Of a stretch of 64,000 nucleotides of DNA, positions 3,381 through 6,906 are shown one piece after another; positions within the stretch are counted from its first letter, which is position 1, and each line of letters opens with the position of its first letter. The translations under genes were made by a program, and so were the position numbers. The DNA lies in the NCBI GenBank assembly GCA_018268595.1, contig JAFDWH010000026.1, forward strand, positions 248,001 through 312,000, in the 5' to 3' direction. Below the pieces are notes generated by a model. That model saw nothing but the letters and a program-made list of their open reading frames with translations. It made no database searches and had not been told where the DNA came from. Source of the DNA: Actinomycetota bacterium. GTDB lineage: Bacteria; Actinomycetota; Thermoleophilia; Solirubrobacterales; Solirubrobacteraceae.

Positions 3381-4562
3381 ATGAGCCCGTCCGGCGCGGA
3401 GCTGCTCCGCCAAGTCAAGAGCCAGATCGAAGAGGTCGATCCCGCGGTCGTCGCCGAGCATCTCGGGAACGGCATGGTGCTCGTCGACGTGCGCGAGACG
3501 GACGAGTTCGGCGTCGCGCACATCCCCGGCGCAAAGCACGTGCCGAAGTCCTACCTGGAGACGCGCATCGAGGCCGCCGCGCCCGACAAGGACGCGTGGG
3601 TCGTCCTCTACTGCGCCTCCGGCAACCGCTCGGCGTGGGCGGCGCGCACGCTGACCGAGGACCTCGACTACAAGAGAGTCGCCTCGATGACGGGCGGGAT
3701 CGCGCTGTGGAAGGACCGCGGCTACGAGGTCGCGACCCCGAAGGCGCTCACCGCCGAGCAGCGCGACCGCTACTCGCGCCACCTGCTGATGGACGAGGTC
3801 GGCGTCGAGGGTCAGATCAAGCTGCTCGAGTCGAGAGTGCTGCTGCTGGGCGCCGGCGGGCTCGGCGCCCCGACCGCGCTCTACCTTGCGGCGGCCGGCG
3901 TCGGCACGCTCGGGATCGTCGACAACGACGTGGTGGACCTCTCCAACCTGCAGCGCCAGGTGATCCACACGCAGGACCGCGTCGGCGTGCCGAAGGTCGA
4001 CTCGGCCGAGCAGACGATCGCGAACCTGAACTCCGACGTGAAGGTCGTCAAGTACCCGGTCCGCATCGACGCCTCCAACATCATGGAGATCATCGAGGGC
4101 TACGACGTGATCGTCGACGGGCTCGACAACTTCCCGACGCGCTACCTGCTCAACGACGCCTCGGTGCGGCTGAGAATCCCGGTCGTGTCGGCCTCGATCC
4201 TCGGCTTCGACGGTCAGCTGTCGGTCTTCGCGCCGTACGAAGGGCCGTGCTACCGCTGCCTCTACCCGACGCCGCCGCCGGCCGAGCTGGCGCCGTCCTG
4301 CGGCGCGAACGGCGTGCTCGGCGTGCTGCCGGGGACGATGGGCCTGCTGCAGGCGACCGAGGTCGTGAAGCTGATCCTCGGCGAGGGCGAGCCGCTGATC
4401 GGGCGCCTGCTGCTGTACGAGGCGCTCGGTGCGACGTTCACCGAGCTGAAGGTGCGCCGCGACCCCGACTGCCCGATCTGCTCGCGCGAGCCGGAGTCGA
4501 TCTCCGACGACGAGATGGGCGTGTTCCCCGACTACGAGGCGTTCTGCGCCGCGGCGGGCTAG
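3381..4562 (+). CDS. Rhodanese-ThiF/MoeB sulfur-carrier activating enzyme (MoeZ-like, inverted domain order)
   Basis: A 393-residue enzyme expected to adenylate the C-terminal glycine of a ubiquitin-like sulfur carrier and convert it to a thiocarboxylate. Residues 15-120 are a rhodanese domain with active-site loop CASGNRS (Cys78). Residues 125-393 are an E1-like ThiF/MoeB domain with GAGGLG (157-162), DNDVVDLSNLQRQ, and zinc cysteines Cys290/Cys293 and Cys364/Cys367. Known MoeZ proteins carry the rhodanese at the C-terminus; here it comes first. ATG 3381 has a GAGGAG Shine-Dalgarno. Its TAG stop is followed after 12 bases by cysO, its likely substrate, and cysM and the JAMM protease lie just beyond. 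Confidence 0.9.
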   Translation: MSPSGAELLRQVKSQIEEVDPAVVAEHLGNGMVLVDVRETDEFGVAHIPGAKHVPKSYLETRIEAAAPDKDAWVVLYCASGNRSAWAARTLTEDLDYKRVASMTGGIALWKDRGYEVATPKALTAEQRDRYSRHLLMDEVGVEGQIKLLESRVLLLGAGGLGAPTALYLAAAGVGTLGIVDNDVVDLSNLQRQVIHTQDRVGVPKVDSAEQTIANLNSDVKVVKYPVRIDASNIMEIIEGYDVIVDGLDNFPTRYLLNDASVRLRIPVVSASILGFDGQLSVFAPYEGPCYRCLYPTPPPAELAPSCGANGVLGVLPGTMGLLQATEVVKLILGEGEPLIGRLLLYEALGATFTELKVRRDPDCPICSREPESISDDEMGVFPDYEAFCAAAG

Positions 4563-4574
4563 GGTTCCGCTCCT

Positions 4575-4853
4575 ATGGCTACCGTCAAGATCCCACCGGT
4601 CCTGCGCGCGTCCGTCGGCGGCGAGAAGGAAGTCGCCGCCGACGGCGCCTCCGTCGGCGAGGTGCTCAACGCGCTCGCCGCGGCGCACCCGCAGACGCAG
4701 ACGCAGCTGTTCTCATCCGAGGGCGAGCTGAACCGCTACGTGAACGTCTACCTCAACGACGAGGACGTGCGCGTGCTCGACGGCCTGCAGACGGCCGTCG
4801 GCGAGGGCGACACGCTGGTCATCCTGCCGGCGATGGCCGGCGGCTCCCGCTAA
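4575..4853 (+). CDS. cysO: CysO-type ubiquitin-like sulfur carrier
   Basis: A 92-residue MoaD/ThiS-fold protein. The stretch RYVNVYLNDEDVRVLDGLQTAV and ILPAMAGG closely resemble mycobacterial CysO, which carries sulfide as a thiocarboxylate to O-phosphoserine on CysM. The diglycine is residues 89-90, but the protein continues with Ser-Arg, so the glycine cannot be adenylated until two residues are removed; the JAMM protease gene at 6508 is an obvious candidate. Initiation appears leaderless: TAGGGT (4560-4565), whose TAG is the stop of the preceding gene, lies 9 bases before the ATG. Its stop overlaps the end of the convergent XRE gene by 4 bases. Confidence 0.9.
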   Translation: MATVKIPPVLRASVGGEKEVAADGASVGEVLNALAAAHPQTQTQLFSSEGELNRYVNVYLNDEDVRVLDGLQTAVGEGDTLVILPAMAGGSR

Positions 4854-5101
4854 CGCTCGGCGGCGTCGAACGCGTCCGCGATCTCGCGGAAGAACTCGCC
4901 GAGCTGCATGTCGAGCCCGCCTGCGAGCGCGACCATCGATTCCAGCTTGGGGTCGAGCTCGCCCCGCTCCGCCTGACCGGGGTACTTGTGCCCGAGCTTG
5001 CCGGCGCGGGCGACGTCCTCCTGCGTGAGCCGCCGTGCGCGCCGCATCTGTCGTACCGCCGACGCGAAGATGCGGCGCTCTCTCTCGGCGGGCGGCGGCA
5101 C
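4850..5101 (-). CDS. Small XRE-family DNA-binding regulator
   Basis: An 83-residue protein consisting almost only of a Cro/C1-type HTH: RRLTQEDVARAGKLGHKYPGQAERG, then LDPKLESMVALAGGLDMQLGEFF. It starts with GTG at 5101 and lies inside the cysteine module, convergent with cysO and divergent from cysM. A compact dimeric repressor of this type would suit a short palindrome such as the ACTT-N4-AAGT boxes at 3331, 5262 and 58684, making it a candidate regulator of the module; that is inference. A separate palindrome at 5137 lies in its own upstream region. Confidence 0.8.
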   Translation of the reverse strand: MPPPAERERRIFASAVRQMRRARRLTQEDVARAGKLGHKYPGQAERGELDPKLESMVALAGGLDMQLGEFFREIADAFDAAER

Positions 5102-5136
5102 CTCCGAGACTCTTCTGACGAGCGGGTCAGAAATAC

Positions 5137-5151
5137 ACCCCTTGCAGGGGT
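5137..5151. promoter_or_regulatory. 15-bp palindrome upstream of the XRE gene
   Basis: ACCCCT-TGC-AGGGGT is a perfect inverted repeat in the AT-richer gap between the XRE gene and cysM (5102-5277). It lies about 36 bases before the GTG of the XRE gene and about 130 before cysM. It could be an autoregulatory operator or a short hairpin; no T tract follows. Confidence 0.4.
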
Positions 5152-5261
5152 TATTTTGAGTTGTATAAGGGGCTAAGTGGGGTTTAGAAGGGTGGTGTTG
5201 CCACTCGGGTCGTGTGCGATGGCGCGTCCCGGCCGACGCTGCTAGCTGAGCGAGGCCTCGC

Positions 5262-5277: not shown

Positions 5278-6249
5278 ATGGACGGGGAGCGCCTGCGCAA
5301 CAGACCCTGCGGGGGTCGCTACGGGGACCTCGTGCAGGCGATCGGCAACACGCCGCTCGTCGAGCTCAAGCGGCTCTCGCCGAAGCCCGGCGTGCGCATC
5401 TGGGCCAAGCTCGAGTCGCGCAACCCGACCGGCTCCGTCAAGGACCGCGTCGCACGCTCGCTGATCGAGGACGCGGAGGAGAAGGGCGCGATCAGACCCG
5501 GCCAGACGATCCTCGAGCCGACGTCGGGCAACACCGGCATCTCGCTCGCGATGATCTGCAAGCGCAAGGGCTATCCGCTCAAGGTCGTGATGCCGGACAA
5601 CGTCACGCAGGAGCGCACGCAGCTGCTGCAGATGTACGGCGCCGAGATCGTCTACTCCGACGGCTCGAAGGGCTCCAACGGCGCCGTCGAGCTGGCGCTG
5701 GAGATGGCCGCCGCCGACTCCTCGTACTACATGCCCTACCAGTACGGGAACGTCGCGAACCCGCTCGCGCACTACAACGGCACGGCGCTGGAGATCCTCG
5801 AGGAGCTGGACGAGATCTCCGCCTTCGTCGCCGGCCTCGGCACCGGCGGCACGCTGATGGGCAACGGCAGACGCTTCAAGGAGGAGCTGGGCGACGCGGT
5901 GAAGATCGTCGCCGCCGAGCCGATGCAGGGCGAGCCGGTGCAGGGCCTGCGCTCGCTCGACGACGGCTTCATCCCGCCGATCATCGATCTGTCGCTGCTC
6001 GACCGCAAGATCTTCGTCACGAACCGCGACGCGATCCTGTGGACCCGCAAGCTGCTCGACGAGGAGGGCCTGTTCGCGGGCGTCTCGACGGGCGCGATCG
6101 CACGCGTCGCGGTGCGGATCGCGAACGAGCTGGACGAGGGCAACGTCGTCTTCATCGTCGCGGACGACGGCTGGAAGTACCTCTCGTCCGGGATCTACAC
6201 GCTGCCGGTCGACGAGGTCGAGAACCTCGACTCGACCGTTTGGTGGTAG
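5278..6249 (+). CDS. cysM: CysM, CysO-dependent cysteine synthase
   Basis: A 323-residue PLP enzyme. IWAKLESRNPTGSVKDR carries the PLP lysine (Lys55), TSGNTGISLA binds the substrate carboxylate, and GLGTGGTLMGNGR binds the PLP phosphate. It is closest to mycobacterial CysM, sharing LLQMYGAEIVYSDGSKGSN and the C-terminal DDGWKYLSSGIYT, which in that enzyme belongs to the CysO-using type that accepts O-phosphoserine. With CysO and a JAMM hydrolase in the same locus, it should form the CysO-cysteine adduct. ATG 5278 is chosen because the promoter box sits directly in front; the upstream in-frame ATG at 5212 precedes that promoter. Confidence 0.92.
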   Translation: MDGERLRNRPCGGRYGDLVQAIGNTPLVELKRLSPKPGVRIWAKLESRNPTGSVKDRVARSLIEDAEEKGAIRPGQTILEPTSGNTGISLAMICKRKGYPLKVVMPDNVTQERTQLLQMYGAEIVYSDGSKGSNGAVELALEMAAADSSYYMPYQYGNVANPLAHYNGTALEILEELDEISAFVAGLGTGGTLMGNGRRFKEELGDAVKIVAAEPMQGEPVQGLRSLDDGFIPPIIDLSLLDRKIFVTNRDAILWTRKLLDEEGLFAGVSTGAIARVAVRIANELDEGNVVFIVADDGWKYLSSGIYTLPVDEVENLDSTVWW

Positions 6250-6294: not shown

Positions 6295-6498
6295 ATGTTC
6301 TCCCAGATCGGACCGATGGAGATCGTCCTGGTCCTCGTGATCGCCCTCCTGGTCCTCGGCCCGAAGCGCCTCCCCGAGGCCGGCCGCTCGATCGGCAAGG
6401 GCATGCGCGAGTTCAAGGACTCGATCGCCGGCATCAACAAGGACGAGGACGAGCCGCAGCAGGACCTCACCGCCGCGCGCGAGCGCGAGGCCGCCTAG
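6295..6498 (+). CDS. tatA: TatA/TatE twin-arginine translocase subunit
   Basis: A 67-residue protein with the TatA layout: short periplasmic N-terminus, one membrane helix (IVLVLVIALLVLG, residues 10-22), hinge FGPKRLP-like sequence (here LGPKRLPEAGRSIGKG), an amphipathic helix and a charged tail. It would polymerise into the Tat pore for folded proteins. Position 6254-6259 (TACCAT) may be a -10 and AAGGA at 6279 a Shine-Dalgarno, so it has its own leader. No tatB or tatC is nearby. Its place between cysM and the JAMM protease is unusual. Confidence 0.93.
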   Translation: MFSQIGPMEIVLVLVIALLVLGPKRLPEAGRSIGKGMREFKDSIAGINKDEDEPQQDLTAAREREAA

Positions 6499-6507
6499 CC
6501 GACGCGC

Positions 6508-6906
6508 ATGCGCATCGCCCGCGAGCTGTACGACCAGATCGTCGCGCACGCTCGCGCCGAGGCGCCGAACGAGTGCTGCGGCGTCGTCGCGACGAACGGC
6601 GACGGAAGCGCGCGGCGGGTCTTCGCGGCGACGAACAAGTTCGCCAGCCCGCTGCGCTTCGAGATCGACGGACCGGACCTGATCCGGATCATCGACGCGA
6701 TCGACGACGAGCAGCTCGAGCTCGGCGCGATCTACCACTCGCACACGCGCACCGCCCCGGAGCCGTCGCAGACGGACGTGAACCACGCCGCCGCGTGGCC
6801 CGGCGCGCTGTGGATCATCGTCGGGCTCGCCGGCGAGCAGCCCGACGTGCGCACGTGGGCGATCGAGGACGGCCGCGTCGCGCAGGTGGAGCTGATCGTC
6901 GAGTAG
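6508..6906 (+). CDS. mec: Mec-type JAMM zinc metalloprotease
   Basis: A 132-residue single-domain JAMM/MPN+ hydrolase. The catalytic Glu is in APNECCGVV (Glu22), and the zinc site is HSHTRTAPEPSQTD (His77, His79, Ser87, Asp90). Mycobacterial Mec releases cysteine from the CysO-cysteine adduct. Because CysO here ends in Gly-Gly-Ser-Arg, the same enzyme may also trim the precursor, as a JAMM protein does for QbsE in Pseudomonas; that second role is inference. It follows tatA by 9 bases and is followed after 2 bases by the zinc-ribbon gene, so the three are probably co-transcribed. Confidence 0.92.
   Translation: MRIARELYDQIVAHARAEAPNECCGVVATNGDGSARRVFAATNKFASPLRFEIDGPDLIRIIDAIDDEQLELGAIYHSHTRTAPEPSQTDVNHAAAWPGALWIIVGLAGEQPDVRTWAIEDGRVAQVELIVE

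What the first reader, a model, noticed from the sequence alone, without database searches (positions are those of the whole stretch)
4575..4853. CysO carrier ends Gly-Gly-Ser-Arg and needs C-terminal trimming
CysO and MoaD proteins normally end in Gly-Gly so that the E1-like enzyme can adenylate the last glycine. Here two residues follow (codons TCC CGC, then TAA). A pro-form trimmed by a JAMM protease is known for QbsE/QbsD. The JAMM gene at 6508 is in the same locus and could both mature the carrier and release cysteine from the adduct, a dual use that would gate the pathway.
Basis: partly seen in the sequence, partly recalled or inferred. Interest (0 to 1): 0.65.

Follow-up and report, generated by a model that had tools for sequence, protein, structure and literature searches.

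The report
Sulfur carrier made with removable tail
A soil actinobacterium makes its cysteine-building sulfur carrier with two extra end residues that a neighbouring protease gene very probably trims off; such short caps were already known, but hundreds of relatives show that the tail drifts freely and is sometimes the whole next enzyme, as in ubiquitin precursor proteins.

Summary
In detail: ORF 4575-4853 (Conexibacter-like actinobacterium) encodes a CysO-type carrier ending PAMAGG-Ser-Arg, in a locus with the genome's only recognisable E1, CysM, and its only JAMM protease (complete motif; modelled fold closest to Pyrococcus JAMM1). Trimming is well supported: of 242 distinct CysO genes, 79% carry something after GG (usually 1-2 residues; whole CysM in 24); the residue after GG is never Pro (0/190) and rarely bulky (5/190), although both occur one position later; 23/23 readable carriers of JAMM-less families and the three other carriers of this genome end exactly at GG. 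Precedents exist: QbsE/QbsD, capped PtmS2 with JAMM PtmS1 in Streptomyces, JAMM-cut MoaD-MoaE fusions. So this is a new member of a known kind. The proposed gating is not supported: tails turn over freely, and 18 relatives with the same three genes nearby end at GG. Most likely JAMM is retained because CysO-Cys must be hydrolysed anyway, which makes short tails tolerable. The notable by-product is CysO-CysM single-ORF precursors, which must be cut at GG to work. The mechanism is inferred; no cleavage was tested.

The parts
3381..4562 (+). E1-like adenylyltransferase with N-terminal rhodanese domain (ThiF/MoeB type); the only ThiF-family E1 found in the genome
   Evidence: PF00581 residues 21-112 and PF00899 residues 131-365; NF006444 561 bits, cut-off 449; single full PF00899 match in the genome
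4575..4853 (+). CysO-type sulfur carrier, pro-form ending GG-Ser-Arg
4839..4844 (+). Gly-Gly codons; predicted mature C-terminus after 4844
   Evidence: aligns with the C-terminal GG of 3dwg chain C and 4n6e chain B
4845..4850 (+). C-terminal cap Ser-Arg predicted to be removed
   Evidence: position P1' never Pro and rarely bulky across relatives
5278..6249 (+). CysM-like PLP cysteine synthase
   Evidence: PF00291 1.1e-73; TIGR01136 342.5 bits, just under its cut-off 344.15; 92-94% identical relatives about 85-90 bp downstream of cysO in most congeners
6508..6906 (+). JAMM/Prok-JAB metalloprotease, candidate for both pro-CysO trimming and CysO-Cys hydrolysis; E22, H77, H79, S87, D90 form the JAMM motif
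   Evidence: PF14464 83.1 bits; only PF14464 match in the genome; motif invariant in 44 aligned relatives; model pLDDT 97.4, best fold match P. furiosus JAMM1-SAMP2 5lda, TM 0.90
6295..6498 (+). TatA-like gene between cysM and jamm; in the locus, probably not in the mechanism
   Evidence: PF02416 3.3e-18; near the locus in many relatives, absent or inverted in others

Best explanation
CysO is made as a pro-protein. The JAMM protease encoded by the same locus cuts after Gly-Gly, freeing the glycine carboxylate; the rhodanese-E1 then adenylates and thiocarboxylates it, CysM uses it to build cysteine on CysO, and the same JAMM hydrolyses the CysO-Cys bond, regenerating GG-terminated CysO for the next round. 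Because that protease has to be present anyway, a stop codon placed exactly after GG is no longer required: short tails with a small or polar first residue are tolerated and drift, and in some lineages the tail is the whole CysM protein. Shown here: the tail, the locus, the intact JAMM motif and predicted fold, the residue bias at the predicted cleavage position, the exact GG ends of carriers in JAMM-less families and of other carriers in this genome, and the natural CysO-CysM fusions. Inferred: the cleavage itself, its enzyme, and the sulfur chemistry, which is transferred from M. tuberculosis CysO/CysM/Mec+ and from QbsE/QbsD.
For: Complete JAMM motif and fold, only JAMM in the genome. The three other ThiS-family carriers of this genome end exactly at GG and share the single recognisable E1. 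242 distinct relatives: tail lengths 0 in 51, 1-2 in 127, 3-8 in 34, 9-60 in 5, fused to CysM in 24. P1' Pro 0/190 and bulky 5/190, against Pro 9/130 and bulky 21/130 at P2' (Fisher 2.5e-4 and 3e-5; among 97 unique tails 2.4e-3 and 1.5e-5). JAMM-linked carriers 148/170 tailed or fused versus 2/13 of ThrC-linked carriers (p 8e-8). Families f6/f8, without a JAMM in the searches made, end exactly at GG in 23/23 readable carriers. CysO-CysM fusions with jamm 2-129 nt downstream. Precedents: PMC6006322 (deleting the JAMM gene ptmS1 abolishes thiocarboxylate products in a species with capped carriers), PMC4326299 (MoaX cut at Gly82|Ser83), PMC8832034 (DRJAMM cuts MoaD-MoaE), PMC3227635 (Mec+ hydrolyses CysO-Cys).
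Against: No cleavage was measured. Within true CysO orthologues the link to JAMM can hardly be tested because nearly all such genomes have JAMM; G065 (97% complete) has tail R and no detected JAMM, though its congener G361 has one. Carriers of the JAMM-less families are not orthologues of CysO. Pro avoidance at P1' is weaker when judged against how often Pro follows GG inside ordinary proteins (p 0.035 for 97 unique tails). Short tails are far commoner than drift predicts (67% of tails are 1-2 aa against 3% expected), so tail length is under some constraint that is not explained. Sequences are related, so p-values overstate independence.
Confidence: 0.8

Rival explanations
1. The tail is trimmed, but by a general carboxypeptidase or another house-keeping protease; the JAMM acts only on CysO-Cys.
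For: Tails are mostly 1-2 residues, the kind a carboxypeptidase could remove; the protease that cuts M. tuberculosis MoaX was not identified (PMC4326299).
Against: Fusions with the 300-residue CysM need an endopeptidase. First-position bias points to a cut between GG and X. ThrC-linked carriers do not drift in the same way.
Confidence: 0.1
2. The tail is a regulatory cap: trimming gates the pathway.
For: Tail and JAMM gene are in one locus.
Against: Tail length and sequence turn over quickly (120 changes on the tree); 18 relatives with E1, CysM and JAMM nearby end at GG; no conserved tail motif.
Confidence: 0.06
3. The protein works mainly as a ubiquitin-like modifier (SAMP type) and JAMM is its processing and deconjugating enzyme; cysteine synthesis is secondary.
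For: CysO passes the SAMP1 model NF041918 (66 bits, cut-off 60); the nearest solved JAMM is P. furiosus JAMM1 bound to SAMP2.
Against: CysM is in the locus or fused to the carrier; JAMM scores 76 against a cut-off of 130 for the desampylase model; the nearest full-length solved relatives include M. tuberculosis CysO.
Confidence: 0.08
4. The Ser-Arg end is an accident of the strain-specific insertion that lies directly behind the stop codon and carries an HTH gene.
For: The antisense HTH gene ends inside the cysO stop and was not found beside cysO in relatives.
Against: Congeners without the insertion also carry a residue after GG (R or A), so a tail pre-dates it; at most one codon could come from the event.
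Confidence: 0.05

Closest known systems
M. tuberculosis CysO-CysM-MoeZR-Mec+ cysteine pathway
   Same: ThiS/MoaD-fold carrier with GG, CysM-like synthase, JAMM, E1 with rhodanese (PMC3227635)
   Different: M. tuberculosis CysO ends exactly at GG (3dwg chain C); here Ser-Arg follows, and rhodanese is N-terminal to the E1 domain instead of C-terminal
Capped carriers PtmS2/PtmS3 with JAMM PtmS1 in Streptomyces platensis (PMC6006322)
   Same: 1-2 residues after GG in a JAMM-linked carrier, GG-terminal carriers in the same genome; deleting the JAMM gene abolishes thiocarboxylate products
   Different: There the read-out was thioplatensimycin; here the locus contains cysM; cap is SR instead of MV or C
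QbsE/QbsD of thioquinolobactin biosynthesis
   Same: Pro-carrier trimmed by a protease (as summarised in PMC6006322; the original paper is not held)
   Different: Siderophore pathway in Pseudomonas, not primary cysteine synthesis
MoaX (MoaD-MoaE) of M. tuberculosis and DRJAMM/MoaD-MoaE of Deinococcus
   Same: GG-ending carrier fused to its partner enzyme and cut after GG (G82|S83), in Deinococcus by a JAMM (PMC4326299, PMC8832034); analogous to the CysO-CysM fusions
   Different: Molybdopterin synthase instead of cysteine synthase
Operon type 4c of Iyer, Burroughs and Aravind 2006 (PMC1779556)
   Same: ThiS/MoaD + E1-rhodanese + JAB + cysteine synthase; they proposed that JAB frees ThiS/MoaD from fusions
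   Different: The passages read mention neither short tails nor CysO-CysM fusions

Membership tests
CysO/CysM/Mec+ cysteine-biosynthesis pathway | ThiS/MoaD-fold carrier homologous to CysO with a Gly-Gly motif | tested here: met
   phmmer 2e-21 to 3dwg chain C; PF02597 53.9 bits
CysO/CysM/Mec+ cysteine-biosynthesis pathway | Carrier ends exactly at GG as in characterised members | tested here: not met
   Ser-Arg follows GG; a processed relative is proposed, so membership is claimed only as 'works like'
CysO/CysM/Mec+ cysteine-biosynthesis pathway | Linked PLP cysteine synthase of CysM type | tested here: inconclusive
   PF00291 met, but cysKM model 342.5 bits against cut-off 344.15 and cysM model 301.6 against 394.2
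CysO/CysM/Mec+ cysteine-biosynthesis pathway | Linked JAMM protease with intact zinc motif | tested here: met
CysO/CysM/Mec+ cysteine-biosynthesis pathway | CysO thiocarboxylate and CysO-Cys adduct formed and hydrolysed | not testable with these tools
   needs biochemistry
Capped sulfur carriers processed by JAMM (QbsE/QbsD, PtmS2/PtmS1) | Residues after GG in a carrier linked to a JAMM gene | tested here: met
Capped sulfur carriers processed by JAMM (QbsE/QbsD, PtmS2/PtmS1) | Sequence signature of cleavage between GG and X | tested here: met
   Pro and bulky residues avoided at P1' but not at P2' across relatives; statistical and indirect
Capped sulfur carriers processed by JAMM (QbsE/QbsD, PtmS2/PtmS1) | JAMM removes the cap | not testable with these tools
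   needs protein and mass spectrometry
SAMP/desampylase protein-modification system | JAMM passes the desampylase model | tested here: not met
   NF041370 76 bits, cut-off 130
SAMP/desampylase protein-modification system | Carrier passes the SAMP1 model | tested here: met
   NF041918 66 bits, cut-off 60
SAMP/desampylase protein-modification system | Isopeptide conjugation of the carrier to target proteins | not testable with these tools
   needs proteomics

The most novel reading that the evidence does not exclude
In several actinobacterial lineages CysO is made as a ubiquitin-fusion-like precursor with its own acceptor enzyme CysM in one chain, and a single JAMM next door works both as the convertase that splits the precursor into equimolar CysO and CysM and as the hydrolase that releases each cysteine; the short tails, including Ser-Arg here, are another form of the same freedom. 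Text searches of the held library found no description of CysO-CysM fusions.
Probability: 0.6. Interest if true: 0.6.

Novelty: new member of a known kind. Interest (0 to 1): 0.45.

Why it matters
It turns an isolated oddity into a rule: where a JAMM partner works on the carrier, the exact C-terminal stop of a ubiquitin-like sulfur carrier is released from constraint. Cloning such CysO proteins at full length should give inactive protein unless they are trimmed. The CysO-CysM fusions are a bacterial parallel to ubiquitin made as fusion precursors, in a primary amino-acid pathway, and offer a direct test of dual JAMM function.

Tried and rejected
Annotation or frameshift error: rejected, the frame to GG is conserved in 80 relatives. 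Conserved functional tail motif: rejected, 97 distinct tails. Upstream E1-CysO fusions suggested by long open frames: rejected, these are arginine-rich shadow frames of a GC-rich genome. Tail explained by the strain-specific HTH insertion: congeners without it also have a residue after GG. The single-sequence AlphaFold model of CysO was poor (pLDDT 43) and not used. The papers for QbsE/QbsD (PMC1855785) and CysO co-option (PMC4082789) are not held.

Full report
Observation. The ORF at 4575-4853 encodes 92 residues ending PAMAGG-Ser-Arg, stop TAA at 4851-4853.

Surroundings. Upstream, 3381-4562 is one protein with an N-terminal rhodanese domain and a ThiF-type E1 domain. Downstream are a CysM-like PLP enzyme (5278-6249), a TatA-like gene and a Prok-JAB/JAMM protease (6508-6906). 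The genome holds one recognisable ThiF-type E1 and one Prok-JAB match. It holds three other above-threshold ThiS-family carriers: one next to a threonine-synthase-like gene, one ThiS-like and one MoaD-like; all three end exactly at GG. So within one genome, with one E1, only the carrier encoded beside JAMM has a tail.

The JAMM. Residues E22, H77, S78, H79, S87 and D90 are invariant in 44 aligned relatives, and 167 of 169 distinct JAMM sequences match the E-HxH-x7-S-x2-D pattern with the spacing tried; the other two carry a longer loop before HxH. The AlphaFold model has pLDDT 97.4 and its best PDB match is Pyrococcus furiosus JAMM1 in complex with the ubiquitin-like SAMP2 (TM 0.90). An active protease is therefore expected, not shown.

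Relatives. In 80 loci of GTDB genomes and further fetched stretches the carrier is conserved up to GG and then variable. Of 242 distinct CysO genes, 51 end at GG, 60 have one extra residue, 67 two, 34 three to eight, 5 nine to sixty, and 24 run on into CysM; one more fused gene is cut by a contig end. Congeners carry R or A where the window has SR. On an E1 tree the presence of a tail changes at least 22 times and the tail string at least 120 times. This is drift, not a conserved signal. It is not unconstrained drift: given the downstream stop frequency of 1.5% per codon only 3% of tails should be 1-2 residues, but 67% are.

Signature of cleavage. The first residue after GG is Ala, Ser or Arg in most tails; Pro is never seen (0 of 190) and V/I/L/M/F/Y/W in 5. 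One position later Pro occurs 9 times and bulky residues 21 times in 130 (Fisher 2.5e-4 and 3e-5; combined 1e-8; on 97 unique tails 2.4e-3, 1.5e-5 and 2.5e-8). Against non-coding triplets behind the stop, 27 Pro would be expected. Against residues that follow GG inside 822 ordinary proteins Pro is expected at 4% and its absence is only mildly significant (p 0.035), while avoidance of bulky residues is very strong (2 of 97 against 33%). The pattern fits a protease cutting between GG and X; JAMM P1' preference itself was not measured. Streptomyces platensis PtmS2 has Met there (PMC6006322), so the avoidance is not absolute.

Link with JAMM. Carriers with a JAMM gene nearby are tailed or fused in 148 of 170 cases; carriers beside a threonine-synthase-like gene in 2 of 13 (p 8e-8). 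Families f6 and f8 gave no JAMM match to the window protein among the genomes listed, and the members tested with the Pfam model have none over its cut-off; all 23 of their readable carriers end exactly at GG. These are not orthologues of CysO, so this is supporting evidence only. G065 has a tail and no detected JAMM at 97% completeness; its congener G361 has one.

CysO-CysM fusions. A class-wide search with a fused protein found uninterrupted CysO-linker-CysM frames in about 25 of 399 genomes, in families f7, f10 and f11; 24 distinct ones were read in full, including one in a 3.28-Mb contig (L245) and one outside the class (L289). In 21 of them jamm starts 2-129 nt behind the fused ORF. At least nine changes between fused and separate states are needed on the E1 tree. 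In L190 no start codon was seen between the two parts, so CysM is probably made only as a fusion there; in L186 and L189 an internal GTG could also start CysM. Since a GG carboxylate must be free to be adenylated, these proteins have to be cut. JAMM-dependent cutting of the analogous MoaD-MoaE fusion is shown in Deinococcus (PMC8832034), and MoaX of M. tuberculosis is cut between Gly82 and Ser83 (PMC4326299), the same GG|S junction as in the window.

Comparison with what is known. Mec+, the JAMM of the M. tuberculosis CysO pathway, hydrolyses CysO-Cys (PMC3227635). Capped carriers that need a JAMM are known from QbsE/QbsD and, in an actinobacterium, from PtmS2/PtmS3 with PtmS1: deletion of the JAMM gene abolished thiocarboxylate products (PMC6006322). 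Operons of carrier, rhodanese-E1, JAB and cysteine synthase, and the idea that JAB frees carriers from fusions, date from 2006 (PMC1779556). The tail in the window is thus a new member of a known kind. I found no description of CysO-CysM fusions in the held library, which does not cover most subscription papers.

Judgement. Trimming by the locus JAMM is likely (0.8). A gating role is unlikely (0.06), because relatives with the same genes do without the tail (18 cases with E1, CysM and JAMM in the fetched stretch). The economical reading is relaxed constraint: the protease is needed to release cysteine and so makes an exact stop unnecessary.

Noticed in passing
L186, L189, L190, L237-L250, L264, L266-L272, L289: CysO and CysM encoded as one uninterrupted ORF with a short linker after GG, jamm usually directly downstream; at least nine state changes on an E1 tree.
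   Followed up: yes
window 4850-5200: Roughly 345-bp strain-specific insertion with an antisense HTH gene (4850-5101) splits cysO from cysM; the HTH stop overlaps the cysO stop. Congeners have a hairpin-like spacer and a GCTACACTYCGTGAAGTAATGG stretch before cysM, of which only the latter part is kept here.
   Followed up: partly
L002 1492-1764 (own genome C13:378047-378310): Second CysO-like carrier directly behind a threonine-synthase-like PLP gene, ending exactly at GG; such ThrC-linked carriers recur in other Actinomycetota (11 of 13 end at GG, two end GG-Cys). Function of the pair not established here.
   Followed up: partly
L251: CysO-CysM fused frame in which the carrier part is degenerate and has lost the GG; genome is 66% complete, so it may be an assembly fault or a decaying gene.
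   Followed up: no
window 3381-4562: Rhodanese domain is N-terminal to the E1 domain, the reverse of mycobacterial MoeZR.
   Followed up: no
window 6295-6498: TatA-like gene sits between cysM and jamm here and in many relatives, inverted in some others.
   Followed up: no
L281, L292, L273, L006, L206: Unusually long tails (13-53 residues) after GG in otherwise normal CysO genes, one of them repetitive (L281).
   Followed up: no
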